From Elusimicrobium minutum Pei191 (GTDB lineage: Bacteria > Elusimicrobiota > Elusimicrobia > Elusimicrobiales > Elusimicrobiaceae): DNA of 64,000 nt. A program made the position numbers and the translations under genes. The stretch lies in contig NC_010644.1 in the NCBI RefSeq assembly GCF_000020145.1, positions 434,001 through 498,000 on the forward strand. The letters run 5' to 3'. Each line of letters begins with the position of its first letter. Within the stretch, counting starts at the first letter, position 1. The notes under the pieces were generated by a model that did no database searches, was not told where the DNA came from, and saw nothing but the letters and a program-made list of their open reading frames with translations. Of the stretch, positions 3,148-30,610 are shown in pieces.

Positions 3148-3148
3148 T

Positions 3149-4843: not shown

Positions 4844-4846
4844 AAT

Positions 4847-6702: not shown

Positions 6703-6722
6703 GTTTAATCAGTTTCTATATT

Positions 6723-6809: not shown

Positions 6810-6837
6810 GTAAACATCTCACTTTATAAGGAAGTTT

Positions 6838-10284: not shown

Positions 10285-10313
10285 CCCGTAAATATAAAAA
10301 CCGGAGTAGGCAA

Positions 10314-11054
10314 ATGAAATACGGCGTATTTTCAGACGTGCATGCTAATCTGCCCGCTTTAGAAGCTGTTCTGGCTGAGTTTGATAAAGCCGGGATAGAC
10401 CATTTTATATGCTGTGGTGATATTATAGGTTACGGTCCCCACGCGGAAGCCTGCGCTTCTGCTGTGCGTAAACTTCCCAATCTTATAGCGGTTATGGGCA
10501 ATCACGATAAAGCCCTTTCCGATCCGGATATATTACAGTTTTTCAGCCAGGAATCGGTTATGCCTATAGTAGACGCGAATATGTATCTTTCAAACCAGAA
10601 TATTCTTTTTTTGTCTGAACTTCCCAATGTTTATCTTTCAGAAACATTTTCTTTAGTCCACGGCACATTTTCCGATCCTTTTAAGGAATATCTTTTAACT
10701 CCGGCCCAGTTTAAATTAAATAAAGACGAGTTCCCCGGCTCTTATTGTTTTATAGGGCACAGCCATATACCTTTTATTATGTGCGGACATGATGAGCAGC
10801 ATGTTTCTGTGGAATTATTTCCCAAAGAAGAAGTTACTATAAAATTTGACCCTAAAAAGAAATATTTTATTAACCCCGGGTCGGTAGGCCAGCCCAGGGA
10901 CCATAATCCTTTAGCCAGCGCCGGTATTTTTGATTCCGATAACAACACTTTTAAACTTATCCGCGTAGCTTACGATATAAAAAAAGTGCAGGAAGACATG
11001 AAGAAAAAAGGCTTTTCCGAGCGTTTGATGAACAGGCTTGGCAAAGGAGTATAG
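10314..11054 (+). CDS. Calcineurin-like metallophosphoesterase
   Basis: This 246-aa cytoplasmic phosphoesterase carries the full set of metal-binding motifs: FSDVHANLPAL (D-x-H), CGDIIGYGPH (GD), GNHDKAL (GNHD), and GHSHIPF (GHxH), plus NPGSVGQPRD. This arrangement is the YfcE/MJ0936-like or PrpE-like branch, whose members act on phosphodiesters or phosphoproteins with Mn or Fe/Zn. The natural substrate is unknown. It has a GGAGTAGG ribosome site 29 bp after smc. The MFS gene begins 6 bp downstream, so the two are probably cotranscribed. Confidence 0.88.
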   Translation: MKYGVFSDVHANLPALEAVLAEFDKAGIDHFICCGDIIGYGPHAEACASAVRKLPNLIAVMGNHDKALSDPDILQFFSQESVMPIVDANMYLSNQNILFLSELPNVYLSETFSLVHGTFSDPFKEYLLTPAQFKLNKDEFPGSYCFIGHSHIPFIMCGHDEQHVSVELFPKEEVTIKFDPKKKYFINPGSVGQPRDHNPLASAGIFDSDNNTFKLIRVAYDIKKVQEDMKKKGFSERLMNRLGKGV

Positions 11055-11060
11055 AATAAT

Positions 11061-12482
11061 ATGTTGGCGCTAGACAGTGTGGCCGGCCGGTTGCGCGGGT
11101 CCAAAAAAGTAATCGCGTGGCTTGTGGCGGTAGCTTTTTTTATGCAGATGTTAGACGGTACTATTCTAAATACAGCTCTTCCAGAAATAGCCAAATCGTT
11201 TGGCGAAAACCCTTTAAGAATGCAGTCTGTTGTAATATCCTATATGCTTACCGTGGCGTTTATTTTGCCCATATCCGGCTGGCTGGCGGATTTTCTTGGC
11301 ACTAAAAGGGTTTTTATAAGCGCTATTTTTATTTTCAGTTTAGGTTCTCTTTGCTGTGCTTTGTCAAACACTCTTACGCAGTTGGTGCTCTCGCGCGTTT
11401 TGCAAGGCGTGGGCGGCGCTTTAATGGTGCCCGTGGGCAGGCTTGCCGTAATGAGGATATTTCCTAAAAAAGAACTTGTTTCGGCTTTAAGTTTTATCAC
11501 AATACCTGCTCTTGTAGGGCCTATTGTCGGGCCTTTCGCGGGTGGTGTTATTGTGCAGTATGTTTCCTGGCATTGGATTTTTTTAATTAATCTGCCCATA
11601 GGCGTTGTTTGCGCCGTATTTACTTATATAGCTATGCCTAAAGTAACGCCCGTTAAATTTAAATTTGACTGGATAGGCTACCTTTTATTTAGCGCGGCTG
11701 TTATACTTATATCACTTTCATTAGGAAGTGTTGATGAGGCTACGCTCGGCCGCAGGGCCGCGGTATTAATGTTTTTAGCCGGAGCTTTATGCCTTGGCGC
11801 TTACGCAAGGCTTTCAATAGCCAAACCATGGAGCGCTTTATTTAAACCAAGGCTTTTTTATGAACGCAGTTTTACCGTGGGTATAATAGCTAATTTATTT
11901 ATACGCTTTGCCGGCGGCAGTTTGCCTTTTTTAGCTCCTTTATTTTTGCAAACGGCCTTAAATTATTCCCCTTTAAAAGCGGGTGTGGCAATGCTTCCTT
12001 TAGGCGTAATGTCCATAGCCGCTAAGACTTTTGTGGAACCAGTGTTAAACAAGTTAGGATACAGGCGTTTAATGACTTATAACGCTATAATCATAGGTAT
12101 TATGCTTTGTTTTCTTGCGTTCATAGGGCCAAATACAAGCTATTTGTTTATTTTGGTTTATTTGGGCGTGCTAGGCATATTCAACTCTATGCAGTTTACC
12201 TCTTTAAACACTCTTACGCTTATTGCGGTTCCGCCAAGGGATTTAAGCCAGGCTAACAGCCTGCTTTCGGCTGTTATGCAAATTTCAATGGGACTGGGCG
12301 TATCTTTAGTTTCGGCCGCGCTTGCTTATTTCGGTGCGCATACGGCTAAAATAGGGTCTGAAAATATACTTTATTCCTTCCACGCCACATTTGTTTTTAT
12401 AGGCGTTATTTCAATACTGGGGGTAATTTTATTTCAAAGCAAATTTGCCCGGGGTATAGTAGATAAGCCTAAAAACATGTAA
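11061..12482 (+). CDS. MFS multidrug exporter, DHA2-like
   Basis: This 473-aa inner-membrane transporter has about 13-14 predicted helices. The family D1 motif is seen in the first helix (MLDGTILNTALPEIAKSF), motif A follows helix 2 (GWLADFLGTKRVF), and motif C-like glycine/proline-rich VGPIVGPFAGG lies in helix 5, which is typical of drug:H+ antiporters such as MdtD/EmrB. No EmrA-like partner or TolC is adjacent, so it may work alone. A start at the ATG at 11061 fits the spacing to GGAGTATAG upstream. Its substrate is not predictable. Confidence 0.88.
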   Translation: MLALDSVAGRLRGSKKVIAWLVAVAFFMQMLDGTILNTALPEIAKSFGENPLRMQSVVISYMLTVAFILPISGWLADFLGTKRVFISAIFIFSLGSLCCALSNTLTQLVLSRVLQGVGGALMVPVGRLAVMRIFPKKELVSALSFITIPALVGPIVGPFAGGVIVQYVSWHWIFLINLPIGVVCAVFTYIAMPKVTPVKFKFDWIGYLLFSAAVILISLSLGSVDEATLGRRAAVLMFLAGALCLGAYARLSIAKPWSALFKPRLFYERSFTVGIIANLFIRFAGGSLPFLAPLFLQTALNYSPLKAGVAMLPLGVMSIAAKTFVEPVLNKLGYRRLMTYNAIIIGIMLCFLAFIGPNTSYLFILVYLGVLGIFNSMQFTSLNTLTLIAVPPRDLSQANSLLSAVMQISMGLGVSLVSAALAYFGAHTAKIGSENILYSFHATFVFIGVISILGVILFQSKFARGIVDKPKNM

Positions 12483-12548
12483 ATAACCATTAAAAAAAGG
12501 TAAAATGTCTTATAATACTTTTAAGATTACGCAGAGGTTAATTTTGTT

Positions 12549-13067
12549 ATGAAAAAAAATAAAAAGGCCGCTTTAAAGAAAATTATTAAAAAAACTACAA
12601 AAGCAAACACCCCCAAGGAATCAAAAAACGAATCTCCCCTTCTTAAAGAAGTTAAACAAATTTATTCATTTATGCAGTCTGAAAATTTAGGCTCTGTTTC
12701 TTATGAGCAAAAAGGCGTTACTGTTAAAATAGTACGCGCGGCCCCCCAGCAGGTAGCGGTACCCGTTGCCGTTGGTGCGGTTGCCACTGGCAGCGCGCAA
12801 GCCTGTAGCGCTCCCACGCCGGAATACAAACAGGTTATCAAATCACCTCTTATGGGTATTTTCTTTAGAGGTTCATCACCGAGCGCGGCTCCTTTTATAA
12901 GAGAAGGGGAAAAGGTTAAAGCCGGCGATGTTGTGTGCCTTATCGAAGCTATGAAAGTTTTTAACGAAGTAAAAGCCGATGTGGACTGCGTGATAAAAAA
13001 AGTTTTAGTAGATAACGGCAAACCGATTAAAGCGGGCGAGCCGCTTTTCGCGATTGAAAAAATTTAA
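12549..13067 (+). CDS. accB: Biotin carboxyl carrier protein of acetyl-CoA carboxylase
   Basis: This 172-aa carrier has a lysine-rich N-terminal extension (about 1-30), then a linker, and a C-terminal biotinyl domain. The biotin attachment site is EAMKVFNEV with K136. It carries CO2 from biotin carboxylase to the carboxyltransferase for malonyl-CoA synthesis. The thumb-like SSPSAAPFIREG segment places it with AccB rather than with decarboxylase subunits. accC is not adjacent, which is unusual, as the genes are commonly paired. A helix-winged small protein and pyrE follow within 10 bp. The N-terminal basic tail is longer than in most AccB. Confidence 0.92.
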   Translation: MKKNKKAALKKIIKKTTKANTPKESKNESPLLKEVKQIYSFMQSENLGSVSYEQKGVTVKIVRAAPQQVAVPVAVGAVATGSAQACSAPTPEYKQVIKSPLMGIFFRGSSPSAAPFIREGEKVKAGDVVCLIEAMKVFNEVKADVDCVIKKVLVDNGKPIKAGEPLFAIEKI

Positions 13068-13076
13068 CGGTGTTTT

Positions 13077-13274
13077 ATGACAGATAATATTAAAGATACC
13101 TCAGCTAAAATATTGGCCTATTTACAGGGTAAGGAAAAAGTAAGTTCCTGGGAGCTTAAACTGCGCCTTCACCTGGCGGGCTCAATGCTTTATATATCTT
13201 TAGGCTCTCTTCTCGAACAAGGTAAAATTGAGGTTGAGCAGCACGGTTTGGATTACAATATAAAATTAAAATGA
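13077..13274 (+). CDS. Small winged-helix-like protein
   Basis: This 65-aa protein shows an AKILAYL...VSSWELKLRLHLAGSML helix-turn-helix pattern followed by LGSLLEQGKIEVEQHG, which fits the third helix and wing of a small winged-helix domain (DUF2582-like or similar). It could bind DNA or act as a small adaptor. It sits 9 bp after accB and overlaps pyrE by 4 bp (ATGA), so it is a real translated member of this operon. I cannot assign a function; a regulator of the accB-pyrE unit is a guess from position. Confidence 0.7.
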   Translation: MTDNIKDTSAKILAYLQGKEKVSSWELKLRLHLAGSMLYISLGSLLEQGKIEVEQHGLDYNIKLK

Positions 13275-13861
13275 ACAAAATAGAAAAAGAAGAAGTTTTA
13301 TCCGTTTTTAAAGAAAAAGGCGCTTTGCTTGAAGGCCATTTTAAACTTTCAAGCGGCCTGCACAGCGCCAAATATTTGCAATGCGCCAAAGTGCTTCAAT
13401 ATCCCGAAACGGCCGAGCGTTTTTGCAAACAACTGGCCGCCGAACTTAAAACCAAAGGCGTTAAGGTTGACGTGGTTGTAGGGCCCGCTATGGGCGGCGT
13501 TATTATAGCCTATGAACTTGCAAGGCAGCTTGGCGTAAGAAGCGTTTTTACGGAAAGAGTTGACGGTAAAGTTCTTTTAAGGCGCGGTTTTGAAATTAAT
13601 AAAGGCGAAAATTGCGTAATAGCTGAAGACGTTGTTACAACAGGCAAATCAACAAAAGAAGTTATTGATGTCTTAAAAGAGCATGGCGCGAACCTTACGG
13701 CCTGCGCTTCTTTAATTGACCGTAGCGGCGGGGAAGCCTCTTTCGGGGTTCCTTTTGTTAATATGGCCCAAGTTGAGGTGGAAACGTTTGAACAGTTCGC
13801 CTGTCCTATGTGCAAACAAAATATTCTGGTTGAAAAGCCCGGCTCAAGAAAAGAAATATAA
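13271..13861 (+). CDS. pyrE: Orotate phosphoribosyltransferase
   Basis: This 196-aa enzyme joins orotate and PRPP to give OMP in pyrimidine synthesis. It has the PRPP motif VIAEDVVTTGKSTKE and substrate segments FKLSSGLHSAKYLQ and GPAMGGVII, as in the archaeal/Thermus-type branch of PyrE. The tail contains a CPMC pair (FACPMCKQN), seen in several PyrE of this branch and possibly metal-binding. The start overlaps the upstream stop (ATGA), so coupling is likely. No other pyr genes are in the window. Confidence 0.93.
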   Translation: MNKIEKEEVLSVFKEKGALLEGHFKLSSGLHSAKYLQCAKVLQYPETAERFCKQLAAELKTKGVKVDVVVGPAMGGVIIAYELARQLGVRSVFTERVDGKVLLRRGFEINKGENCVIAEDVVTTGKSTKEVIDVLKEHGANLTACASLIDRSGGEASFGVPFVNMAQVEVETFEQFACPMCKQNILVEKPGSRKEI

Positions 13862-13929
13862 TATAAAACACATTAAAATTTTGTATATTAAAAAATAAGT
13901 AAAAATATAAAGTCCTTAAAGGAGGAATT

Positions 13930-14190
13930 ATGAAAAAGTTCTTAGTATTGGCAGTATCCGCAGTGGCGCTCTTTGCCTGCGCAAAAAATAAAGTAGAAGA
14001 TTCCTCCGCAGCCGCTTACAGACAGCAGCAAAAGGCGCTCATCACAGACCAGGAATTTGACAAAGTTTTAGCCCCCAAACTGGATTATGAAACGGAAATA
14101 AGCTACGAACAGCAGCTTAGAACCTCGGGTACGTTTGTCAAAGGAACACAAGGTTCTTCTAAAAAGACCTCTGCTAAAAAGAGCAAGTAA
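13930..14190 (+). CDS. Small lipoprotein of unknown function
   Basis: This 86-aa protein starts MKKFLVLAVSAVALFAC, a signal peptide ending in a lipobox (LFAC), so Cys17 should be lipidated. The mature part is charged, Gln- and Ser-rich, and ends in KKTSAKKSK. No domain is recognised. A strong AAAGGAGG ribosome site precedes the ATG. It ends one base before the nadA start, so it is probably the first gene of the nadA-nadC-aminotransferase unit, although no functional link is obvious. Confidence 0.7.
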   Translation: MKKFLVLAVSAVALFACAKNKVEDSSAAAYRQQQKALITDQEFDKVLAPKLDYETEISYEQQLRTSGTFVKGTQGSSKKTSAKKSK

Positions 14191-14191
14191 C

Positions 14192-15226
14192 ATGTCTTCC
14201 GATTCAGATATTAAGCAAGAATCAGTGCGTTTATTTAGCGAGCTGAAAAATGTCTCCTTAAGAAAAAATGTTAAGTGGACATTGGAAGACTGCGAAAAAA
14301 TAGCTCCTTATACCTTAGAAATAAACAAGCTTAAAAAAGAAAAGGACGCTGTTATCTTAGCTCATTCCTACACTAACCCCGAAATAATGTACGGCGTTGC
14401 TGATACGATAGGGGACTCTTACGCTTTAAGCATGGAGGCAAGCCGCGTTAAAGCTAAGACAATAATTTTTGCCGGCGTATGGTTCATGGCCGAAACGGCT
14501 AAAATAATAAACCCGTCTAAAAATATTTATATTCCCGCCGGCCACGCCGGCTGCACGCTGGCTGATTCCATGACGGGGGAAGACCTTTCTAAATTTAAAG
14601 AAAAATATCCCGGCGTTCCGGTAATTTGCTATATCAACAGCTCAGCCGACGTTAAAGCATACAGTGATGTTTGCGTTACGTCCGCCAATGTTTATGATAT
14701 TGCAGCAAAAATGCCGGGCGATAAACTTATTTTTGTACCTGATGTTTTGATGGCGGATAATCTGCAGGCCGAACTTAAAAGGCGCGGCGTAAGAAAGGAA
14801 ATTGTTTCTACTGGCGGTTCTTGCTGTGTACATGATAAGTATACAGAGCAAGATGTTGAACATTTACGCTCCGAATACCCGGGCATTAAGGTAATGATAC
14901 ACCCCGAAGCCAGGATAGAAATATGCCGTCTTTGCGATTATGTAGGCGGTACGGGCGGTATGCTTAAATATGTGGCGGAGTCAAAAGATAAAACCTTAGG
15001 TCTTCTTACGGAAGTAGGTTTGGTTAACCGCCTTGAGCATGACAACCCGGATAAAAAATTTATATGGAACAAAGGCACTTGCGCTTATATGAAAAGAAAT
15101 ACTCTTCTTAATACTTTAAGCGCCCTGCAAAATCCTTCGTCCGCGCAAACGGTTGTTGTTGAGGAAAATATCTGTAACCGCGCGTCCGAATGTATTGAGA
15201 AAATGTTTAAAATGACGGACAGGTGA
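14192..15226 (+). CDS. nadA: Quinolinate synthase A
   Basis: This 344-aa Fe-S enzyme condenses iminoaspartate with dihydroxyacetone phosphate to quinolinate in NAD synthesis. It shows AHSYTNPEIMYGVADTIGDS, GVWFMAETAKI, the GSCCVHDKY cysteines, HPEARIEICRLCDYVG and NKGTCAYMKRN, covering the three [4Fe-4S] ligands. An upstream in-frame TTG at 14135 would add 19 residues inside the lipoprotein gene; I prefer the ATG at 14192 because it directly follows the upstream stop and starts a normal-length NadA. nadC follows. No nadB is seen, so the iminoaspartate source must be encoded elsewhere or be an aspartate dehydrogenase. Confidence 0.93.
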   Translation: MSSDSDIKQESVRLFSELKNVSLRKNVKWTLEDCEKIAPYTLEINKLKKEKDAVILAHSYTNPEIMYGVADTIGDSYALSMEASRVKAKTIIFAGVWFMAETAKIINPSKNIYIPAGHAGCTLADSMTGEDLSKFKEKYPGVPVICYINSSADVKAYSDVCVTSANVYDIAAKMPGDKLIFVPDVLMADNLQAELKRRGVRKEIVSTGGSCCVHDKYTEQDVEHLRSEYPGIKVMIHPEARIEICRLCDYVGGTGGMLKYVAESKDKTLGLLTEVGLVNRLEHDNPDKKFIWNKGTCAYMKRNTLLNTLSALQNPSSAQTVVVEENICNRASECIEKMFKMTDR

Positions 15227-15231
15227 TTTTT

Positions 15232-16065
15232 ATGATAGATAAACTTATTATTCTTGCTTTAGAGGAAGATTTGGGGCTGGGGGACATAACTTCAGACAAT
15301 ATTTTTACCGAGAATGACGAAGCCCTTGCCGAAATAACAGCCAAAGAAGATATGGTAATTTGCGGCATGAACATAGCTAGAGATGTTTTTAATTATGTTG
15401 ACCCTTCTTTAAAATTTACGCCTTTAAAAAAAGACGGCGATACCGTCAAAAAAGGCGAAACAGTGCTTAAGCTTGACGGTAAAACTTTAAGCATTTTACG
15501 GGGTGAACGCACCGCTTTAAACTTTATGCAGCGTATGAGCGGAATTGCGACAGCCTCAAAAGAATTTTCCGAAACAGGCAAAAAATACGGCGTTATGATT
15601 GTTGATACAAGAAAAAGCCTCCCTGGTATGCGTAAACTTGATAAATACGCAGTGCGCTGCGGCGGGGCCAAAAACCACCGTATGAGCTTGTCGGACTCGG
15701 TTCTTATTAAAGACAACCACATAGCCGCCGCCGGCGGTATAGCCAAAGCTGTGGAAAAAATACGCGCGGCTATAGGCCACACTCCTAAAATTGAGGTTGA
15801 AACAACCAATATTGATGAAGTAAAAGAAGCGCTGTCCTCCAAGGCTGATATTATTATGCTTGATAACATGACGCCCGCTCAGGTTACACAAGCTTTAAAA
15901 GTAATTAATAAGGCCGCCATAGCGGAAGTATCGGGCGGAGTTAATAAAAACAATTTGGAAGACTACTGTAAAACAGGGGCTGACGTTATTTCTATGGGCG
16001 CTTTAACGCATTCTGTTCCTTCTAAAGACTTAAGCCTTAAAATTACAGGATATAAGGAGATTTAA
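15232..16065 (+). CDS. nadC: Nicotinate-nucleotide pyrophosphorylase (carboxylating)
   Basis: This 277-aa enzyme converts quinolinate and PRPP to nicotinate mononucleotide, CO2 and PPi. The N-terminus is LALEEDLGLGDITSDNI and the active-site segment is DTRKSLPGMRKLDKYAVRCG, followed by NHRMSLSDSVLIKDNH and EVSGGVN, all diagnostic. A GTG at 15223 overlaps the nadA stop, but the ATG at 15232 is preceded at good distance by AGGTG, so it is preferred. It lies in the nadA-nadC-aminotransferase run. Confidence 0.93.
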   Translation: MIDKLIILALEEDLGLGDITSDNIFTENDEALAEITAKEDMVICGMNIARDVFNYVDPSLKFTPLKKDGDTVKKGETVLKLDGKTLSILRGERTALNFMQRMSGIATASKEFSETGKKYGVMIVDTRKSLPGMRKLDKYAVRCGGAKNHRMSLSDSVLIKDNHIAAAGGIAKAVEKIRAAIGHTPKIEVETTNIDEVKEALSSKADIIMLDNMTPAQVTQALKVINKAAIAEVSGGVNKNNLEDYCKTGADVISMGALTHSVPSKDLSLKITGYKEI

Positions 16066-16067
16066 TT

Positions 16068-17279
16068 ATGCTAAATTATTCAAATTTATTTTCAGAAGTA
16101 ACTAAACGCACCAAAGCTTCAGTAATAAGAGAGCTTTTAAAACTTACCGCCAAGCCTGAAATTATTTCTTTCGCGGGCGGATTGCCTGACCCTAAAGAAT
16201 TTCCCGTTGAAGACGTTAAAAAAATGTTTGATATTATTTTAAACAAATATTCCTCCGCCGCTTTACAGTACGGCGCTACTGAAGGCTGTGCTTCTTTAAA
16301 AACAGCTCTTTGCAAATGGCTAAAAGATGTTGAGGATATTGACGTTGCCGATAACCAGATGTTAATTACATCAGCCTCACAGCAGGCGCTTGATATGGTA
16401 GCCAGGATTTTTATTAACCCCGGCGACAGGATTATAGTTGCCACCCCGACATATTTAGGGGCGTTACAGTCCTTTCAAACAGCGGGGGCCGATATTAAAG
16501 GCGCAGATAGCGATGATGACGGCGTAATACCTGAAAGTTTGGAAAAATGTTTGGAACAAACCAAAGAGGAAGGCAAACAGTGCAAATTTGTTTACCTGGT
16601 GCCTGATTTCCAAAATCCTACAGGGGTTACAATACCCCAGGAACGCAGGTTAAAAATATTAGAAACCGCTAAAAAATATAACACCGTAATTGTGGAAGAT
16701 TCCCCTTATAGACAGGTGCGTTTTGAAGGGGAAGCGCCAAAAACATTTTACAACCTTGATAAAGGGCAGGGTAATGTAATTACATTGTTTACTTTTTCAA
16801 AGATTTTTGTTCCCGGTTTCAGGTTAGGCTATATTATCGCCAATGAGGAAGTTATAAGAAAGTTTGTGGTTTTAAAACAGGCTATGGATTTATGCTCACC
16901 TTCAATACTCCAGCTTGCCACGGCGGAATATATTAACGGCGGATATCTTGAAAAACATATAAAAAGAGTTGTGGAAGTTTACAGAAAAAAAAGAACAGCC
17001 ATGCTTGCCGCGCTTGAAAAATATATGCCCGAGGGGGTTAAATGGACCCGTCCCGAAGGCGGTTTATTCTTATGGGTAACATTGCCCAAATATTTAGATA
17101 CGGAAAAAATGTTCCCCAGCGCTATTGAAAATAATGTGGCGTATGTGGTTGGCTCGGCCTTTTACTATGACGGCAAAACCAAAAATGATATGAGGCTTAA
17201 TTTTTCTTACGCTACGCCTGAAGAAATTGACGAAGGTATTAAGCGTTTGGCCTTGGCTGTTAAAAAGAATCTTAAATAA
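16068..17279 (+). CDS. PLP-dependent class I/II aminotransferase (2-aminoadipate/LysN type)
   Basis: This 403-aa fold-type I aminotransferase has FAGGLPDPKEFP at the N-terminus, LQYGATEGCASLK, PDFQNPTGVTIPQERR and the PLP-lysine segment TFSKIFVPGFRLGYI. This set is shared by the LysN, KAT-II and MocR-catalytic branch, which transaminates 2-aminoadipate, aromatic or branched amino acids with 2-oxoglutarate. The exact substrate cannot be fixed. It begins 2 bp after nadC, so it may be translated with it; in a NAD cluster an aspartate-related role is possible but unproven. It is followed by a strong terminator. Confidence 0.88.
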   Translation: MLNYSNLFSEVTKRTKASVIRELLKLTAKPEIISFAGGLPDPKEFPVEDVKKMFDIILNKYSSAALQYGATEGCASLKTALCKWLKDVEDIDVADNQMLITSASQQALDMVARIFINPGDRIIVATPTYLGALQSFQTAGADIKGADSDDDGVIPESLEKCLEQTKEEGKQCKFVYLVPDFQNPTGVTIPQERRLKILETAKKYNTVIVEDSPYRQVRFEGEAPKTFYNLDKGQGNVITLFTFSKIFVPGFRLGYIIANEEVIRKFVVLKQAMDLCSPSILQLATAEYINGGYLEKHIKRVVEVYRKKRTAMLAALEKYMPEGVKWTRPEGGLFLWVTLPKYLDTEKMFPSAIENNVAYVVGSAFYYDGKTKNDMRLNFSYATPEEIDEGIKRLALAVKKNLK

Positions 17280-17378: not shown

Positions 17379-17870
17379 TTAACTTGCTTTTACTATAAAA
17401 TAGCCAGATGCCTGCCCTGAAGATGTTGTGTCTTTTACCGATTTTCCGGTAATTGATTGGCAAATTTTTTCTGCATTTAAATCTCCGTTGGCAGCCCAAC
17501 AAATAAAGTGCCCATTATAATATTTTTCAATCTGGACTTTTGTTTTTATGCTGTTACAATAAACCGAATTGTATGAGGATTGCGCATTAGTAAGAAAACA
17601 TAAAAAATTATTATATTCTATTTTGGCGTCAGTAAGTTTTGTTCCTCCGGCAGGCATTTCAATATCAAGTTCATCAAAAGTCTTAGCGTAGGAGCCTGTG
17701 GCAAGGTGATATCTTACTTGTGCCTGTTCGATAGCTCTTACAAGTGGAAAAAGGCCTGTAACACGTGTCTTTTCAACTGCTCTTGTGTATTGTGGCAAGG
17801 CGATAGCCGCTAAAATGCCTATAATTAATACAACCACTAAAAGCTCAATAAGAGTAAAACCTTTTTTCAT
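17379..17870 (-). CDS. Type IV pilin-like (pseudopilin) protein
   Basis: This 163-aa protein begins [20 protein letters not shown], the class III signal cleaved and N-methylated by prepilin peptidase before Phe, with Glu5 of the mature protein. After the hydrophobic spine helix comes [14 protein letters not shown], the conserved pseudopilin neck. The rest is variable and holds four Cys in the C-terminal half, able to form disulfides. It could be a minor pilin or pseudopilin of type IV pili, a type II-like system or a competence device. No assembly ATPase or secretin lies nearby. It shares its first about 28 residues with the pilin at 48156 but uses different codons and has an unrelated C-terminal half. 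AGAGAGGATAA precedes the ATG. The 155 bp upstream hold nothing I can assign. Confidence 0.9.
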
Positions 17871-23154: not shown

Positions 23155-23993
23155 TATCTGTTACCCCACTTAAGTTTGCTGTTTAAAGTTTTTAAAAAGT
23201 CGTAATTTTCAACCTGTAAAAGTTTTAATTTAGTGGGACTTGTGGATATTAAAACGCTGTCGCCCGTTTCAATAATGTAGGTTATTTGCCCGTCTATGTT
23301 TACGGTGGCGTAATCGCCATCTCTCTTAAATTGGGGGGTAAAAACCAACTGTGAACTGCCTTGCATAACAAGCGGACGCTGCGTTAAAGTGTGCGGGCAT
23401 ATCGGGGTAATTAAAATTACGTCAACCTCAGGCGCTATTACGGGGCCTCCGGCGGCTAAAGAATAAGCGGTAGAGCCTGTGGGGGTGGAAGCTATAATTC
23501 CGTCGCCAAAGTATTTCTGGGTTTCTTTGCCTAAAGAGGACATTTCAATAGTAAAAGCCCTTGCCCCGCCTGTTTTTATAACGCAGTCATTAAAGGCGGG
23601 CTGTTCTTTCGTTATATATTTGCCGTTTTTAAATATGCTTACCGTTAGAAGAGATAAATCATGCCCGCTGTATTTACCTCTTATTATTTGAGAAAGGATT
23701 TCTTTGTAATTGATTAAATCCGCGCTTGTCAAAAAGCCGAGGTTGCCGGCGTTAATGCCAAAAAGTTTAACCTTCTTTTTTAAGGCCGCTCTTCCCGCCT
23801 GTAAAACAGTGCCATCCCCGCCTATGGTTATTAAAAGTTCAATTTCAGCGAGCATATGGGTAAAATCCGAATTATCAAAAATGGTTGTTTTTGCCCCTTG
23901 TTCCTGTAAAAAGGAGGCTACCGCCTCAGCCACGGCGCGATTATGTGTTTTTTCCTTATTATAATATAGCCCGATATTCTTAAATATAATCAT
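23154..23993 (-). CDS. nadK: NAD kinase
   Basis: This 279-aa enzyme makes NADP from NAD and ATP. The GGDGTVLQAGR motif, NAGNLGFLTSAD, and GSTAYSLAAGGP with ITPICPHTLTQRP are diagnostic. It overlaps recN by a base. Together with nadA-nadC in the same window it covers part of NAD(P) supply, though the genes are not in one operon. Confidence 0.95.
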   Translation of the reverse strand: MIIFKNIGLYYNKEKTHNRAVAEAVASFLQEQGAKTTIFDNSDFTHMLAEIELLITIGGDGTVLQAGRAALKKKVKLFGINAGNLGFLTSADLINYKEILSQIIRGKYSGHDLSLLTVSIFKNGKYITKEQPAFNDCVIKTGGARAFTIEMSSLGKETQKYFGDGIIASTPTGSTAYSLAAGGPVIAPEVDVILITPICPHTLTQRPLVMQGSSQLVFTPQFKRDGDYATVNIDGQITYIIETGDSVLISTSPTKLKLLQVENYDFLKTLNSKLKWGNR

Positions 23994-24034
23994 ATAGAAA
24001 TTCTATCATAAAATTAAAACAAATCTCCGCGCGG

Positions 24035-24119
24035 GTTTAGAGGCTAAGGCCCGGAAGGTAAGACCTATTTGACGTATAGGTCTTTTGACCCTGGAAAACG
24101 GGCTCCCCAAAAACTAAAC
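24035..24119 (+). ncRNA. Structured intergenic element upstream of the ChaN-like genes
   Basis: Nested helices can form: GTTTAG/CTAAAC (24035-24040 with 24114-24119), GCCCG/CGGGC (24049-24053 with 24099-24103), GGT/ACC, and a 9-bp perfect stem AAGACCTAT/ATAGGTCTT (24060-24068 with 24076-24084). The loop-side sequence CCCGGAAGGTAAG partly recalls the SRP RNA tetraloop, but the AGCA motif is missing and the halves do not pair as SRP RNA. It ends just before the ATG at 24127, so a 5'-leader or riboswitch-like role is possible. Strand is inferred from the downstream gene. Confidence 0.4.
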
Positions 24120-24126
24120 TTTTAAT

Positions 24127-25086
24127 ATGGGAAATAATATAAGAAAAATGTTTTTTGCATTTTTATTTTTATATGTTGCCGCTTTTGTTTTTGGGCAAAG
24201 CGCAGCGGAGCCTTCTTTAAAAGCTGTTGAAATGTCTATAACCGCCTATCAAAATGACGCTATGGCTTTTGCCGTTAAGGACGGGTTTAATAAAACTAAA
24301 AGCCTTAGAGTTCCTAGAGAAGACCCTTCCATCGACAAGCTGACTTTTGAAATAAACGCTTTTTTAGGTGATAGAAATAACGGCGGGTATATTAAAAATA
24401 AAGGGGCAAAAATTGATTATGCCAAAGAGTTGCCCAAGGTAAAAGTAATTTTGGCGGGGGAAATTCATTTTTTTAATTCAGAGGAGCAGGTTGAAGGCAT
24501 TTTAAAATCATTTAAGAACCCATATTTAGCTTCCGAATTTTTCTCAACGGATATGGAGGATGAAATTGAAGTTTACAGGCTGACTAAGGATGATTTTTAT
24601 ATCCCTTCTTACGCACCCGAGCTAAAAGAATTAAGGGCAAAACTTATAAAACTGGCTGGAAACTCGCACATTATAGCTTTGGAAAACGGACGTATGTACG
24701 AACCAAAGAAAATAGCCGAAAAAATAAACGAAGCGGATGATTATATAATGGCTTCATTAATCGCTTCAAGTTCATTTGAGTTTCATAAAACGGTTGTCGG
24801 TTTGGGATACAGAAACGGATTTTGGCTTGATCGTTTGTCAGATATTATAAAAGATGATAACACGATAGTCGTTTACGGCGGCATGGGGCATATGCTCTAC
24901 GGAGCGGAGTCAGGTTCTTTGTCAGACAGGCTTGCCGCAGAAAATATTGAAACGGCTGTTATATTTTTAATTTCAAAACAAAGGCTTGATGTACGGGTCG
25001 CCCAAGGTTTGGGTCCGGGGCTTACTTTAGTAAAAATGCCCGAACCTGAAAAATACGGTTTTGATTTTATGGTGATTCACGATTAA
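24127..25086 (+). CDS. Secreted ChaN/TIKI-like protein, copy 1
   Basis: This 319-aa protein has a signal peptide (FFAFLFLYVAAFVFGQS). The core carries VILAGEIHFFNSEEQ near residue 112 (GExH motif) and VYGGMGHMLYGAESGSLSDRL near the C-terminus. GExH plus a late GHM histidine is the pattern of the TIKI/TraB, ChaN and erythromycin-esterase-like superfamily, whose members are metal- or heme-dependent hydrolases or binding proteins. It differs from copies 2 and 3: the YRNRHW segment reads YRNGFW, so one conserved histidine is lost. Start ATG at 24127 has no clear ribosome site; an ATG at 24148 is an alternative. It is first of three tandem paralogues. Confidence 0.7.
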   Translation: MGNNIRKMFFAFLFLYVAAFVFGQSAAEPSLKAVEMSITAYQNDAMAFAVKDGFNKTKSLRVPREDPSIDKLTFEINAFLGDRNNGGYIKNKGAKIDYAKELPKVKVILAGEIHFFNSEEQVEGILKSFKNPYLASEFFSTDMEDEIEVYRLTKDDFYIPSYAPELKELRAKLIKLAGNSHIIALENGRMYEPKKIAEKINEADDYIMASLIASSSFEFHKTVVGLGYRNGFWLDRLSDIIKDDNTIVVYGGMGHMLYGAESGSLSDRLAAENIETAVIFLISKQRLDVRVAQGLGPGLTLVKMPEPEKYGFDFMVIHD

Positions 25087-25104
25087 AAAACCGGGGATTT
25101 TTAT

Positions 25105-26079
25105 ATGAAAAAAGCAATTATAACTTTAGTTTTAATCTTAATGGTTTCTGTTTGCCAGGCGCAAAATTCTGCCACCGCTTTTGTCTATCCTGGGCATGAA
25201 AGAATTGAAGAGAAATTAAAAATTTACCAGAAAGAATTTGAACTTTCAAGTTATACTGACCCGTTTATACGTAAAGATATTGACACAAAGGCTACGGCGG
25301 AAACAGACTCCCTTATTAATGGCTTTCTACGTTCCTCTTTGACTTCTAAAAACATAAAACATATTCCGTACGGTATAGATTATTCAAAATTTATTCCTAA
25401 AGACACAAAAGTTGTGTTAGTGGGAGAGACGCATGGTTATGGCTTTGAAACCCATATGGAAAGCATAATAAAGAGTTTGAGATCTGCCGGGAAAAACCCT
25501 TATTTCGCCACAGAATTTCTTTCCTCGGAGGCTAATGCCTGGCTTGCCGCGGCCAAAAAAGAAAAAAATAAAAATTATTTAGATTTTGTTGCAATTTCTG
25601 AGGAGGCCTTCCCCATTCTGGAAGCTTTTGATGATTTAACCGTTATCGGGCTTGAAGTGCCGGAAATTTTTAATGACAGACAAATGATAAACGCTTTTTG
25701 TATACACGCCGCTCTTTTTTGCGCGCTACATGAAGGCGAGATTGCCGACACAAAGGCTGACCTTGCCTGTGTTATAAGCGCGGCTGAAGCCACTGCGTAT
25801 CGCAACAGGCACTGGATTAACGTGCTTGACCCTTACCTGCGTAACAGCGAACCTGTTGTAATCTACGGGGGTATAGGGCATATGTATTATGGCGAGCCTT
25901 CCGGTTCTTTGGCGGACAGGCTTGTAGCGCGCGACATAAAGACTGTTGTTATATATATGTTCTCAAAAAAACAGTTGGACCAAGATTTAAAAGAAAAATT
26001 TAAACAAGAAGCTGTTGTCAAAATCCCGTCAGGACGGAAATCCGAACTTGGAATTGATTATGTTATTATTATTGACTAA
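25105..26079 (+). CDS. Secreted ChaN/TIKI-like protein, copy 2
   Basis: This 324-aa paralogue has signal peptide MKKAIITLVLILMVSVCQAQ. Motifs are VVLVGETHGYGFETHMES, EATAYRNRHWINVLDPYL and VIYGGIGHMYYGEPSGSLADR. The complete set GETH, RNRHW and GHM suggests an intact active or ligand site. The substrate is unknown; peptide, polyketide lactone or heme handling are all known in the wider superfamily. It follows copy 1 by 18 bp with a GGGGATTT ribosome site, so the first two copies form one operon. Confidence 0.72.
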   Translation: MKKAIITLVLILMVSVCQAQNSATAFVYPGHERIEEKLKIYQKEFELSSYTDPFIRKDIDTKATAETDSLINGFLRSSLTSKNIKHIPYGIDYSKFIPKDTKVVLVGETHGYGFETHMESIIKSLRSAGKNPYFATEFLSSEANAWLAAAKKEKNKNYLDFVAISEEAFPILEAFDDLTVIGLEVPEIFNDRQMINAFCIHAALFCALHEGEIADTKADLACVISAAEATAYRNRHWINVLDPYLRNSEPVVIYGGIGHMYYGEPSGSLADRLVARDIKTVVIYMFSKKQLDQDLKEKFKQEAVVKIPSGRKSELGIDYVIIID

Positions 26080-26142
26080 AAGGCAAAAAACATAATTGTT
26101 TTGTCTTTACGACTTGCTGAGGTTAATTTATAAATTTCTATT

Positions 26143-27117
26143 ATGAAACATATTAATATTTTTTTACTTTTAATTTTACTTATAAGCTATGCGCACGGCG
26201 CTCGGGATTATCTTAAAACATCTGAAGGAAACGGATACCCCAAAAAACTTTTGGCTTATATAGAAAATTACAGGGCCGAAACCGAGGCCGACCCATATAT
26301 CCTTGCGAACTCCGATAGAAACGATATTACAGCGGGTGACAATTCTAAAATATTTGACTTTATAGCAAATCAGGATAATGACGCATATATAAAATATTAT
26401 GGTAAAACCATAAATTATAATGAGTTTATAAGTTCCGGTATAAAAGCGCTGCTTGTGGGAGAAACGCATAACTTTGATTTGGAAAAAGAAGTTGTTAAAA
26501 TAGTGGAAAATTTTAAAAAACACAGGCATATGCCATATTTTGCATCCGAGTTTATGGCTTCAGACGCCAATGATTTGATTGCCTTATGCCAAAGTTCGGG
26601 TGATAAAAATATATTAAACGGTAAACAGGTAAGAAAAGAAGTCAAACCTTTTATAGAAGAGTTTTCTGAATTAAAAATAATCGGGCTTGAGCCTCCTGAA
26701 ATTTTTAACGCCCCTTTTCCGTTTGTGTGCGACTATAGCCGCGCTGTCTTATATTACCGAGCGAAAGCAGATGACGATGTGCGCCTTGCCGTGCTGTCGC
26801 CCGAGGCTGTTGCCTACCGCAACAGACATTGGGTTAAAATGCTTACGCCTTATTTATCTGATAATAATATCATTGTCGTTTACGGCGGCGCGGGACATAT
26901 GTTTTATGGTGACCCTTCCGGCTCAATAGCGGACAGGCTGATGGGGCAGAATATAAACACGGCGGTTATGTTTTTGCTTTCAAAAAAGCAGTTTAAAACT
27001 AAAGGCGGGGAATATAAAAATCTTGAAAAAAAGTTTTCAAAAGGCAAAGCCGTTGTCAAAATACCCGATAGTGAGAAAAAGATTTTTCCTTTTGACTATC
27101 TTGTTATCACCGATTAA
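26143..27117 (+). CDS. Secreted ChaN/TIKI-like protein, copy 3
   Basis: This 324-aa paralogue has signal sequence IFLLLILLISYAHGA and motifs LLVGETHNFDLEKEV, EAVAYRNRHWVKMLTPYL and VVYGGAGHMFYGDPSGSIADR. It is closer to copy 2 than to copy 1 by these motifs. A 63-bp gap after copy 2 lacks a clear terminator. All three copies end in I(I/V).D after a FDY/IDY(V/L) strand, so the domain is complete in each. A short hairpin-like GCGCCCGAACATCAGGGGGC follows the stop. Confidence 0.72.
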   Translation: MKHINIFLLLILLISYAHGARDYLKTSEGNGYPKKLLAYIENYRAETEADPYILANSDRNDITAGDNSKIFDFIANQDNDAYIKYYGKTINYNEFISSGIKALLVGETHNFDLEKEVVKIVENFKKHRHMPYFASEFMASDANDLIALCQSSGDKNILNGKQVRKEVKPFIEEFSELKIIGLEPPEIFNAPFPFVCDYSRAVLYYRAKADDDVRLAVLSPEAVAYRNRHWVKMLTPYLSDNNIIVVYGGAGHMFYGDPSGSIADRLMGQNINTAVMFLLSKKQFKTKGGEYKNLEKKFSKGKAVVKIPDSEKKIFPFDYLVITD

Positions 27118-27278
27118 AAAAGCGCCCGAACATCAGGGGGCTTTTTTTATTGTAAAAGCGTCCTTTTGTGTTTATCTTGTTAACATGGTTTTGTTGGCTC
27201 CTTCCCAAAGTTAGAGATTATGTTATTTATACAAAAAATGCCTAAATAATGATTAGATTACAGTTTGTTTTTGTATGT

Positions 27279-27307
27279 TTGAGGTAATATCTGTTGTTAA
27301 TGATAAT
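27279..27307 (+). promoter_or_regulatory. Promoter of the 27.3-kb ncRNA
   Basis: TTGAGG at 27279-27284 and GATAAT at 27302-27307 are separated by exactly 17 bp, predicting a start near 27313. The stretch 27118-27278 upstream shows no gene. Confidence 0.6.
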
Positions 27308-27312
27308 TTTAT

Positions 27313-27676
27313 ATATTAGTACAAGGTGTTAATAACCTAAGTAAAAGGAGTTCACTTGCAAAAGTATAGTCGCCAGTTACGGGCATAACCTCTGCGGCTA
27401 CTGTTACTCTTAGCCTGTTGAGGAAGTAGAGTTAGGGCCAAACCACTTTAAAGGATTCTTATTTTATTGTGAACTTACAAAGGATAAAGTTAAATATAAA
27501 CAAAGAAATATAATCTGTTGCGCCAAACCGTAATGGAGTGTGTTTGCTTGATTAGTGTTATTAATGCCGCAAAACGCGGACTCAGATAAGTATCTTAATT
27601 CGTAAACTAAAAAATGCTCTTTTATAAAGCGTTTATTTAGAAAATCACAGTCCTTTTTAACGGCTGTGATTTTTTT
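27313..27676 (+). ncRNA. Unassigned structured RNA of about 360 nt
   Basis: The region between the promoter at 27279-27307 and a strong terminator (arms 27642-27650 and 27664-27672, AAATCACAG/CTGTGATTT plus T7) has no credible ORF. A closing stem AGTTCAC/GTGAACT (27349-27355 with 27469-27475) encloses TAGTCGC/GCGGCTA (27367-27373 with 27394-27400) and ACTCT/AGAGT. The size matches tmRNA or RNase P RNA, but there is no tRNA-like 3' end, no tag ORF ending in Ala-Ala, and no RNase P GAGGAAAGTCC or CR-V motif. It could be a very divergent form of a known RNA or a new family. Confidence 0.5.
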
Positions 27677-27853
27677 GCCTAAAGCAAAACTAAAAGATAA
27701 TTTCCTTCTGGTAAAACATAAAAAGCATTTTATTAAATATAGCGTGATGTTTATGGAAAAACTGCGGCTCTTATTTTTGTGCTTTGCATACGCGCGGTAT
27801 TTTAAAGCCGCTAATATATATTCTTTCCATGGTCTGTGTATTAGAGCAGATAA

Positions 27854-27897
27854 AACAAATAAAACCCCCGGGTTTTAACCCGGGGGTTTTATTTGTT
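27854..27897. terminator. Long bidirectional terminator
   Basis: A perfect 21-bp stem (arms 27854-27874 and 27877-27897, core ACCCCCGGG) has T-rich flanks on both strands. It ends the minus-strand HAD gene, overlapping its stop, and can also block plus-strand transcription. The stretch 27677-27853 contains only a doubtful ORF. Confidence 0.85.
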
Positions 27898-28750: not shown

Positions 28751-29640
28751 TAACTTTCCTTCTCCTTCTTATTTTGCTTTTTAACAATCATTGTAATCCA
28801 GTAAGCGCCGCCGAAAGCCAGCGCCAAACCCATACCTTGGTACAGATGTATCTTCTCAAGCCCGAAAATGGCCGAAATTGTAAACGTAAGTATAGGGTAA
28901 GATAATATTATAGCAGTTGCTTTGCTCAAATCCATACCTCTTATGGCTTTATACCACAAGGGCTGCGCCGCGCCGTAATAAATTGTTCCCATAAAAAACA
29001 ACATCAAATAACTTTTTGGCGTGTTTGTAAAATATAAACCGCCTTTAACGGCGAAAAATAAGAGTATTGGCAAAATTGTAATACCAGCGTAAATTACCCT
29101 TGCGCCGGATATGAAAACGGGGCTTAAATCCGCAGGAAGTTTTTTTGCCGCTATATGGCTTACCTGAAACATCCATGGGGTTAACAACACAATAATATCG
29201 CCTGTCCAGCGGGGGGTAAAATGTTCATTAAGTAAAATTATAACAACGCCCGATATAACCAAAACGCTTCCACCCAGTTGCCCCAGTGTAGGTTTTTCCT
29301 TTAAAAAAACAAAAGCTAAAATAAGTGAATATAAAATTTCAACCTGGTTTAATATAGCCGCGTTTGAAGGAGTAGTGTACCTTAAAGCGAAAAACATTGA
29401 AGTAAAAGGCAAAGCCGTACCGAACATACCTAAAACCAAAAGATATGGCCAAACGCCTTTTTGAAAAAGTTTGCCCCAAAGTTTTTGTTTGGTAAATATT
29501 GGCGCGAAATAAAGCATTGAAAATACGCATGCCAAAAACACCATAAGAGCGGGCGCCATTAAAGCCGCCCCCTGTTTGCCCGCTATAGGCCATAAACCTG
29601 TTACAAACCAATTTGTCCAAAGCGCCGCTAAAGGCGTCAT
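28750..29640 (-). CDS. EamA-family transporter, paralogue A
   Basis: This 296-aa membrane protein has ten predicted helices in two EamA repeats, with ALRYTTPSNAAILNQVEI in the first half and LSKATAIILSYPILTF in the second. It matches the paralogue 58 bp upstream at many positions (TPxNAAILNQ, LNEHFTPRW, LSKxTAIILSYP). The export substrate is unknown. It starts MTPLAALWTNWFV; the last residues are Lys-rich and cytoplasmic. It is coupled with the HAD gene. Confidence 0.85.
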   Translation of the reverse strand: MTPLAALWTNWFVTGLWPIAGKQGAALMAPALMVFLACVFSMLYFAPIFTKQKLWGKLFQKGVWPYLLVLGMFGTALPFTSMFFALRYTTPSNAAILNQVEILYSLILAFVFLKEKPTLGQLGGSVLVISGVVIILLNEHFTPRWTGDIIVLLTPWMFQVSHIAAKKLPADLSPVFISGARVIYAGITILPILLFFAVKGGLYFTNTPKSYLMLFFMGTIYYGAAQPLWYKAIRGMDLSKATAIILSYPILTFTISAIFGLEKIHLYQGMGLALAFGGAYWITMIVKKQNKKEKES

Positions 29641-29698
29641 AAATCCTGTTCTCCGTTTTACGGCTATGCCAAAATACGGTAAAGCCGTTTAGTAAATA

Positions 29699-30610
29699 TT
29701 AAATTGTTTCTTCTATGCTTTCTAAATTTTCTTTTTTAGCGTTTTGTTTTTTTACAACATGCGTTACCCAATATGCGCCCGCGAAAGTGAGAACCAGCCC
29801 TATTATTTGATATGTTTGCGGTTTTTCAAAACCTAACAGCACCGATAAAATAAAAGATAAAGCCGGGTAAGATAAAATAATTGCCGTTACTTTACTTAAA
29901 TCAAGGTTTCTTATGGCTGTGTACCAAAGCAGCATTGCTATACCGTATTTAAAAATACCCGTGGCTCCTATAACGGCCGCTGCCTGAAAACCGGGTTTAA
30001 AATAAAGTGTGCCCGTGGGCCACATAAATAAAATTAAAATTATTGTGGCAGGCAAAGCCCAAAAACTTCTTGCCGCGGATATTAAAGTGTAATCTAAACC
30101 TTCGGGTAATTTTTTTGCCGCTATATGGCTTATTTGAAACAACCAAACGCTGCCTATAATAATTAAATCGCCTTTCCAACGGGGGGTAAAATGTTCGTTA
30201 AGCAAAATGGCCGCCACGCCTAAAATAACTAAAAAACTGCCGCCTAACTGGCCGAGCGACGGGCGTTCTTTAAGTAAAATTGATGTTAATATTAAGGAAT
30301 AAATTATTTCCGTTTGGTTAAGTATGGCTGCGTTAGCGGGCGTTGTGTAGTTAAGCGCGAACAGCATTATTGAAAACGGCAGCGCCGTGCCGAAAGTTCC
30401 CATCACCAAATAAAGCCCTAAAGTTTTTTTATCAAAGAGCTTGCCCCAAAGCTTCTTTTTAGTCATTGCGGGGGCAAAATAAATGACAGCAAGTATGCTG
30501 CCTGAGAAAACCACTAAAACCGGGTGCGCTACGGGCATTGCGTATTTGCCTATAATGGGCGAAAACGCCGTAATAACCCAGCACAGCCAAAGCGCTGCAA
30601 GAGGATTCAT
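29699..30610 (-). CDS. EamA-family transporter, paralogue B
   Basis: This 303-aa membrane protein is clearly a duplicate of the transporter at 28750-29640: same start pattern (MNPLAALWLCWVI), the TPANAAILNQTEI segment, LLNEHFTPRWKGDL and LSKVTAIILSYPALSF. The tandem pair may form a heterodimer, as EamA proteins can act as two-component pumps, or may transport different substrates. It faces the Sel1 lipoprotein divergently across 84 bp. Confidence 0.85.
   Translation of the reverse strand: MNPLAALWLCWVITAFSPIIGKYAMPVAHPVLVVFSGSILAVIYFAPAMTKKKLWGKLFDKKTLGLYLVMGTFGTALPFSIMLFALNYTTPANAAILNQTEIIYSLILTSILLKERPSLGQLGGSFLVILGVAAILLNEHFTPRWKGDLIIIGSVWLFQISHIAAKKLPEGLDYTLISAARSFWALPATIILILFMWPTGTLYFKPGFQAAAVIGATGIFKYGIAMLLWYTAIRNLDLSKVTAIILSYPALSFILSVLLGFEKPQTYQIIGLVLTFAGAYWVTHVVKKQNAKKENLESIEETI

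What the first reader, a model, noticed from the sequence alone, without database searches (positions are those of the whole stretch)
24127..27117. Three tandem secreted ChaN/TIKI-like paralogues
Three full-length relatives with signal peptides stand in a row; copies 2 and 3 keep GETH, RNRHW and GHM, while copy 1 has RNGFW. Tandem expansion with loss of a conserved histidine in one copy hints at different substrates or a regulatory subunit. The biological role of such secreted proteins here is unknown.
Basis: partly seen in the sequence, partly recalled or inferred. Interest (0 to 1): 0.55.

Follow-up and report, generated by a model that had tools for sequence, protein, structure and literature searches.

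The report
Tandem trio of secreted TIKI-type hydrolases
Three neighbouring genes of a gut bacterium encode exported enzyme-like proteins of an ancient hydrolase fold, all three apparently with an intact active site; they belong to a fast-changing, lineage-specific family that shares a likely genetic switch with other exported proteins.

Summary
The three ORFs are real and most simply one operon; each has an export-signal-like start. Structure prediction places copies 1 and 2 in the TIKI/ChaN/EreA fold (EreC Z 13.5 and 16.0; ChaN 12.1 and 13.4). The 'lost conserved histidine' of copy 1 is not a loss: that site is H in only 12 of 103 relatives, while the superfamily's 2His/2Glu set is present in all three copies and nearly invariant. 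Copy 1 looks as competent as its neighbours.

In these searches the family was seen only in one family-level group of Elusimicrobiota (55 of 149 genomes of the order), up to 21 matches per genome, many in tandem arrays. (2) In a related genus many arrays sit between phage terminase and portal-like connector genes of a mostly single-copy virion cassette. Substrate and regulator are unknown.

The parts
24060..24084 (.). 25-bp palindrome AAGACCTA-N9-TAGGTCTT
   Evidence: AAGRCCTA-N(3-18)-TAGGYCTT has 6 distinct sites in the 1.64 Mb genome, backwards control 0; it can fold as a hairpin, but the window leader folds no better than shuffles (z -0.85)
24077..24092 (+). operator-like motif (here TAGGTCTTTTGACCCT), 50 nt before the copy 1 ATG
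   Evidence: pattern TRGG-N-C-N(4-5)-GDCYCT before 29 of 41 first genes of family arrays, 5 of 99 internal genes, 3 of 591 other genes; backwards control 0 of 731; pattern TRGGNCNWWNGRCYCT has 27 sites in this genome, backwards control 0; only such site in the window
24115..24120 (+). weak -10-like element TAAACT where relatives have a TATAGT-like box
   Evidence: position profile of 36 motif-anchored upstream regions; sequence. A sigma-70 consensus scan reported no + strand site before copy 1
24127..25086 (+). copy 1: TIKI-fold protein with export-signal-like start, 319 aa; 2His/2Glu = E112, H114, E137, H255; RNGFW
25105..26079 (+). copy 2: TIKI-fold protein with export-signal-like start, 324 aa; 2His/2Glu = E108, H110, E137, H259; RNRHW
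26143..27117 (+). copy 3: TIKI-family protein with export-signal-like start, 324 aa; same motifs as copy 2; no structure predicted
27118..27150 (+). intrinsic-terminator-like hairpin with T run after copy 3
   Evidence: 27112-27152 folds at -16.5 kcal/mol, z -4.56, 0 of 200 shuffles as good; the consensus scan listed this hairpin on the - strand only

Best explanation
The locus is a three-gene operon of exported TIKI-superfamily hydrolases that arose by tandem duplication in this lineage. Shown by computation: paralogy, TIKI fold for copies 1 and 2, retention of the 2His/2Glu set in all three, a family seen in these searches only in one family-level group, purifying selection on family members in relatives, and one operator-like motif before and one terminator-like hairpin after the three genes. 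Inferred: the proteins are released by signal peptidase into the periplasm or outside; the His/Glu set activates water to cut a peptide or ester bond of a diffusible substrate (a peptide signal, a bacteriocin-like peptide, or a host or diet compound); the three copies have diverged in substrate rather than in competence; and a regulator bound at the 24077 motif switches the operon together with about twenty other exported proteins.
For: Fold: copy 2 aligns to EreC 6xcq (Z 16.0, 3.2 A over 224), BcR135 2qgm (15.6), ChaN 2g5g (13.4, 4.2 A over 192), HopBA1 (11.8), RRSP (11.5) and PMT (10.3), with the first unrelated row at 9.4. Copy 1: EreC 13.5, BcR135 13.3, ChaN 12.1, HopBA1 11.2, RRSP 10.7, PMT 8.9, first unrelated row 8.1. 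Active site: passages of PMC6254334 give 2His/2Glu as E-x-H, a Glu (28 residues on, by their numbers) and a later His, all four essential in RRSP. The family has E-x-H, E 27 on (copy 2) or 23 on (copy 1), and a later H: E 102, H 103, E 102 and H 103 of 103; 70, 71, 70 and 71 of 71 profile-picked members; 57 of 58 phage-slot members, one gapped. Selection: eight family pairs chosen, dN/dS 0.13-0.28 in seven, the eighth saturated; controls portal, ObgE and RplA 0.04-0.07, TerL 0.10-0.13. Duplication: the three copies group (SH-aLRT 93) beside two proteins of a same-genus genome (90). Regulation.
Against: No activity, metal or substrate is shown; PMT keeps this fold without the catalytic set, so fold alone proves nothing, and I could not measure the geometry of the four residues in the models. 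For copy 1 PMT (8.9) is tied with the first unrelated row (8.1). The tree is a quick one: the trio's fork is open and not starred, and copy 1 has a long branch. One of two other same-genus genomes has no match, as have 34 of 90 genomes of the family. The signal-peptide rule is crude. A sigma-70 consensus scan of 23900-27200 found 9 promoter-like sites against 9.4 expected and none on the + strand before copy 1. The motif's regulator is not identified, and 12 of 41 first genes lack the motif, as does own_1078.
Confidence: 0.6

Rival explanations
1. TraB/PrgY-like role: the proteins bind and degrade or sequester the cell's own or neighbours' signal peptides or bacteriocins. This is a narrower version of the main reading.
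For: 10 of 26 alignment rows match PF01963 TraB/PrgY/gumN weakly (best 0.0018); the matches shown lie over the R-N-x-x-W to G-x-x-H region. PrgY is described as a membrane-localised peptidase thought to degrade the cCF10 pheromone outside the cell and as similar to the human Tiki metalloprotease (PMC7117660 passages). Fast divergence of copies fits changing peptide targets.
Against: No match listed or 63 reaches the Pfam cut-off. No pheromone or bacteriocin gene is recognisable by eye beside the operon (ORFs; ORFs under 100 aa were not listed there, so a small peptide gene could be missed).
Confidence: 0.25
2. ChaN-like role: the proteins bind haem or iron outside the cytoplasm.
For: ChaN 2g5g is the best Foldseek hit of both models (2.9e-6 and 3.3e-4); 15 of 26 alignment rows match PF04187 (best 9e-7).
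Against: By VIA-align EreC and BcR135 score above ChaN for both copies. No window copy is listed for PF04187 at E 5. No haem-transport gene is recognisable by eye among the neighbours (no family search was run on them). The 2His/2Glu conservation points to catalysis.
Confidence: 0.1
3. Copy 1 is a non-catalytic or regulatory partner of copies 2 and 3.
For: Copy 1 has the longest branch of the three (1.55 against 1.01 and 0.80) and departs at two motif positions (GEIH, RNGFW).
Against: Both positions vary freely in the family, and the four catalytic-type residues and R-N-x-x-W are intact.
Confidence: 0.1
4. The upstream motif is an RNA leader or a transcription terminator rather than a DNA operator.
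For: The palindrome can fold as a hairpin; four of six leaders tested fold clearly better than shuffles (z -4.06 to -5.43) and a fifth has z -3.20. At the Etf locus of relatives a similar hairpin with a T run follows the etfA-like gene.
Against: The window leader folds no better than shuffles (z -0.85). The core motif is conserved in sequence and holds a fixed place before a TATAGT-like box; in the window and at own_1488 it lies between divergent genes, where no terminator is needed.
Confidence: 0.2

Closest known systems
Erythromycin esterase family (EreC, BcR135)
   Same: best VIA-align match of both copies; E-x-H ... E ... H set as described for Ere/TIKI
   Different: export-signal-like start; 319-324 aa against 392-408; 10-15% identity in those alignments; lineage-restricted tandem family
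ChaN (PF04187, Campylobacter jejuni ChaN 2g5g)
   Same: fold (Z 13.4 and 12.1); G-E-x-H region matches PF04187 in relatives
   Different: no window copy listed for PF04187; haem binding untested
TraB/PrgY/gumN, TIKI (PF01963)
   Same: R-N-x-x-W ... G-x-x-H segment matches PF01963 in relatives
   Different: below cut-off; no peptide target known
RRSP and HopBA1 (effector proteins with the TIKI fold)
   Same: fold; RRSP has the 2His/2Glu set
   Different: no effector-delivery context seen here; chromosomal genes with ordinary signal-peptide-like starts

Membership tests
TIKI superfamily (TIKI/ChaN/EreA/TraB) | parallel beta-sheet TIKI core fold | tested here: met
   copies 1 and 2 match EreC, BcR135, ChaN, HopBA1 and RRSP at Z 10.7-16.0, more than 2 above unrelated rows; copy 3 not modelled
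TIKI superfamily (TIKI/ChaN/EreA/TraB) | 2His/2Glu catalytic set (E-x-H, Glu, His) | tested here: met
   all three copies and nearly all family members in sequence; geometry not measured
ChaN (PF04187) | match above the Pfam gathering score | tested here: not met
   no window copy listed at E 5; own-genome search: 0 of 1 genome over cut-off; relatives: 15 of 26 rows at E 0.1
ChaN (PF04187) | haem binding | not testable with these tools
   needs protein
TraB/PrgY/gumN (PF01963) | match above the Pfam gathering score | tested here: not met
   copies 2 and 3 at 11.6 and 12 bits against 26.8, copy 1 not listed
Erythromycin esterase (EreA/EreC) | Ere-type fold | tested here: met
   EreC Z 16.0 and 13.5
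Erythromycin esterase (EreA/EreC) | recognisable sequence membership | tested here: not met
   no erythromycin-esterase family among the Pfam and NCBIfam hits (at E 5; at E 0.1)
Erythromycin esterase (EreA/EreC) | macrolide hydrolysis | not testable with these tools
   needs protein
TIKI metalloprotease | metal-dependent proteolysis | not testable with these tools
   needs protein; by PMC6254334 metal dependence varies within the superfamily
phage cargo (moron) genes, for the arrays in relatives | own promoter-like motif and placement between conserved phage genes that lack the insert elsewhere | tested here: met
   13 of 40 TerL loci hold 60 family ORFs, all next to TerL and, in the 12 loci with the connector in view, between TerL and connector; 27 have none; motif before the first gene in several. 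Not met for the window array, which has no phage genes recognisable beside it

The most novel reading that the evidence does not exclude
Elusimicrobiaceae carry a fast-diversifying arsenal of exported TIKI hydrolases, aimed at peptides or toxins of competitors, switched by a dedicated regulator of exported proteins for which I found no description. In one gut genus the arsenal has been loaded as arrays of up to 11 genes into one fixed slot (TerL-connector) of a mostly single-copy virion cassette that may be a domesticated, gene-transfer-agent-like element. The E. minutum trio is the chromosomal, phage-free version of this system.
Probability: 0.3. Interest if true: 0.78.

Novelty: new variant of a known kind. 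Interest (0 to 1): 0.56.

Why it matters
TIKI-fold proteins range from Wnt regulators to antibiotic esterases and bacterial effectors, yet the role of most bacterial ones is open (my recall of the field). The terminase-connector slot links such genes to phage-derived loci.

Tried and rejected
Rejected: (a) loss of a catalytic histidine in copy 1. (b) ChaN haem transporter as first choice. (c) A known RNA family: Rfam at gathering gave only 4 tRNAs in the window; a permissive search of 27100-27890 gave 29 matches, all below gathering; the upstream leader was covered only. (d) Relatives of these proteins in viruses: three viral-contig scans with family queries confirmed none, 'phages' by tblastn with one member none, and 0 family hits at E 1 in the 80 viral loci kept of 82 found by terminase. 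A connector query in viral contigs confirmed none. (e) PHROGs for 26 rows: none. (f) PDB sequence profiles: nothing convincing (HopBA1 appears at E 1.6).

Results against my reading: the window leader RNA folds no better than shuffles. The sigma-70 scan finds no + strand site before copy 1 and no excess over shuffles. An earlier palindrome-only pattern was less specific (9 of 41 first genes, 1 of 99 internal, 5 of 591 others), and at the Etf locus it marks what looks like the terminator of the gene before. The DcuC-like gene upstream of the phage cassette is shared by 10 of 40 loci; five other upstream settings exist and 7 loci have no same-strand gene of 300 aa within 3.5 kb, so the cassette is not at one chromosomal site. 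11 of the 59 genomes with TerL matches have two, some of them fragments. own_1488 is not found by the family profile and is a tentative member. A match at 1634231 (E 0.007) reads as another protein and was dropped. One genome of another family (G097) matched A1 weakly (5.5e-5), but its frame reads like a prolyl-tRNA synthetase (recalled) and I treat it as false. Outside the phylum the family was sought only by pattern scans (and the viral and phage searches), so wider occurrence is not excluded.

Literature searches; I saw their listings, passages of PMC6254334 and PMC7117660 only, and no paper on this family in those listings. The library is open-access only and the original genome paper of E. 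minutum was not seen. A paper on Tiki metalloproteases was not held.

Selection notes: the 103-member alignment is 29 relatives taken through a motif filter, the three window copies and 71 profile-picked members of 300 aa or more; 112 rows became 103 after duplicates were dropped. The enrichment test used non-overlapping ORFs of 150 aa or more, dropped upstream regions that were short or repeated, and includes orthologous loci, so the 41 first genes are not all independent; loci were chosen because they hold family genes or TerL. The 36 regions were chosen for having the motif, so only the box and the spacing there are informative. The signal-peptide rule is slightly wider than that; one search repeats the base rate with the rule.
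Full report
WHAT IS THERE. Three ORFs on the + strand (24127-25086, 25105-26079, 26143-27117) are paralogues at 29-38% identity. Upstream, on the other strand, lie two ORFs that I read as NAD kinase-like and RecN-like; downstream, on the other strand, an HAD-like phosphatase and two DMT-like transporters (ORFs; names recalled, no family search was run on them). A terminator-like hairpin follows copy 3 (27112-27152, z -4.56), the gaps are 18 and 63 nt, and the only operator-like motif in the window lies before copy 1, so the three genes are most simply one operon. A sigma-70 consensus scan did not mark a promoter there.

FOLD. No window copy reaches a Pfam or NCBIfam cut-off. AlphaFold2 models from an alignment of the three copies and 22 relatives gave pLDDT 82.3 and pTM 0.78 for copy 2, and 86.4 and 0.83 for copy 1. 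Against solved structures the top rows are TIKI-superfamily members. Copy 2: EreC 16.0, BcR135 15.6, ChaN 13.4, HopBA1 11.8, RRSP 11.5, PMT 10.3, first unrelated row 9.4. Copy 1: 13.5, 13.3, 12.1, 11.2, 10.7, 8.9 and 8.1 in the same order. By Foldseek E-value ChaN is first for both. PF04187 matches 15 and PF01963 10 of 26 alignment rows at E 0.1; the matches shown in detail are below cut-off. Copy 3 was not modelled.

ACTIVE SITE. Passages of PMC6254334 state that TIKI/Ere enzymes share a catalytic set of two His and two Glu; in RRSP these are E-x-H, a Glu 28 residues on and a later His, and changing any of the four abolished cleavage. The family shows E108-x-H110, E137 and H259 (copy 2), equivalent to E112-x-H114, E137 and H255 in copy 1. 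Because part of that set was picked by motif, I recounted the 71 members picked by profile only: 70, 71, 70, 71, 71, 70, 61 and 7 in the same order. In 58 members from phage slots the four catalytic-type positions hold in 57, with one gap. Copy 1 is therefore not shown to be defective.

DISTRIBUTION. With a three-row profile, 27 of 149 genomes of the phylum matched, 26 of them in the window's family-level group. With a 26-row profile, 56 of 90 genomes of that group matched, with up to 21 matches per genome; 21 was also the number of candidates scored in the largest cases, so these are lower bounds. With a 25-row profile, 55 of 149 genomes of the order matched, all in the same group. Group codes are unnamed; the name Elusimicrobiaceae rests on the organism being E. 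minutum and on record titles such as 'uncultured Elusimicrobiales bacterium'. This genome has the trio plus own_1078 (HMM 3.3e-8) and own_1095 (1.6e-5) and tentatively own_1488 (PF01963 6.6e-4; missed by the profile). Of two other same-genus genomes one has two members and one none. In the tree the trio forms one group (SH-aLRT 93, open fork) next to two proteins of a same-genus genome (90), which fits duplication within this lineage; members of several other arrays also group together (quick tree). Of eight family pairs compared, dN/dS is 0.13-0.28 in seven and saturated in one, against 0.04-0.07 for portal, ObgE and RplA and 0.10-0.13 for TerL: constrained, and mostly less so than neighbours.

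OPERATOR AND REGULON. A motif noticed before copy 1 and before own_1488 led to a palindrome with 6 distinct sites in the genome and then to a core TRGGNC-N4-GRCYCT. With the slightly wider pattern TRGG-N-C-N(4-5)-GDCYCT, 731 upstream regions of relatives' and own loci were scanned: it occurs before 29 of 41 first genes of arrays, 5 of 99 internal ones and 3 of 591 others; one of these 3 is own_1488 and the other two precede proteins that begin like signal peptides by eye. The pattern read backwards occurs in 0 of 731; Fisher p 5e-23 for all family genes against others (loci partly orthologous). In 36 motif-anchored regions a TATAGT-like box sits at +38 to +43, and the ATG is at +50 in 13 of 36, the window included. 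Pattern TRGGNCNWWNGRCYCT has 27 sites in this genome with 0 in the backwards control. Of 27, 24 have an ORF of 90 aa or more within 300 nt, and 23 of 24 begin like a signal peptide (crude rule). With the same rule the window base rate is 15 of 48, and without the three family loci the regulon is 20 of 21, p 4e-7. Of 20 regulon proteins scanned with Pfam, 13 have no hit at E 0.01, 6 only sub-cut-off hits (trypsin and M10 among them), and 1 is pilin-like. Where the ATG sits about 7 nt after the box the mRNA may be leaderless (inference).

PHAGE LINK IN RELATIVES. In another genus of the group, arrays lie between phage genes: TerL (PHROG 2, 1.6e-52), a connector that PHROGs calls head-tail adaptor and I read as portal-like (PHROG 332, 1.1e-132), and a major head protein (1.1e-61). 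A family-free example carries terminase, connector, protease, head, tail and fibre-like genes. TerL of this type matches in 59 of 90 genomes of the group, one match in 48 of them, and is absent here. I fetched 40 of these loci (of 59 genomes): 13 hold 60 family ORFs, 1-11 each; in the 12 with the connector in view all lie between TerL and connector, and 27 loci have none. The 80 viral loci with related terminases have none. The cassette sits in several settings. Whether it is a prophage or a domesticated particle is open.

HOW IT LIKELY WORKS. A regulator acting at the 24077 motif turns on an operon whose three products leave the cytoplasm and, with the His/Glu site, hydrolyse a peptide or ester outside. 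PrgY, a TIKI-like bacterial protein, is thought to degrade a peptide pheromone outside the cell (PMC7117660 passages), which makes peptide substrates plausible. Shown here: sequence, fold of two copies, conservation, association of the motif. Inferred: export route, catalysis, substrate, direction of control.

Noticed in passing
27 sites in G000:C1 (L204-L230); window site 24077-24092: A regulon-like motif TRGGNC-N4-GRCYCT precedes proteins with export-signal-like starts, mostly without a Pfam hit; the regulator is unknown.
   Followed up: partly
L158-L197, L064, L065, L068-L070: A mostly single-copy podovirus-like virion cassette across one genus of the family-level group, with arrays of family genes inserted between TerL and the portal-like connector; possible domesticated or gene-transfer-agent-like element.
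   Followed up: partly
L063 (G140:C27) 2773-16415: Eleven family genes in a row in 13.6 kb at a contig end, no TerL in view; as many as the 11 in the phage slot of L162.
   Followed up: partly
L043-L055: 1-3 family genes at a conserved chromosomal place after Etf-like genes (names recalled); a 568-569 aa gene follows in 12 of 13 loci and the 13th (L045) ends before it. Copy number varies at a fixed site.
   Followed up: no
window 27340-27488: About 150 nt after the operon with ends GTTCAC...GTGAAC looks like a structured RNA by eye, but folds no better than shuffles (z -0.34) and reaches no Rfam gathering score.
   Followed up: partly
window 17382-17870 and 48156-48656; L034 2053-2580; L211: Type IV pilin-like genes ([24 protein letters not shown]) are scattered; one lies after own_1488 and one 251 nt after a regulon site.
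   Followed up: no
window 28753-30610: Two adjacent DMT-type transporter-like ORFs (name recalled) that look like a tandem duplicate.
   Followed up: no
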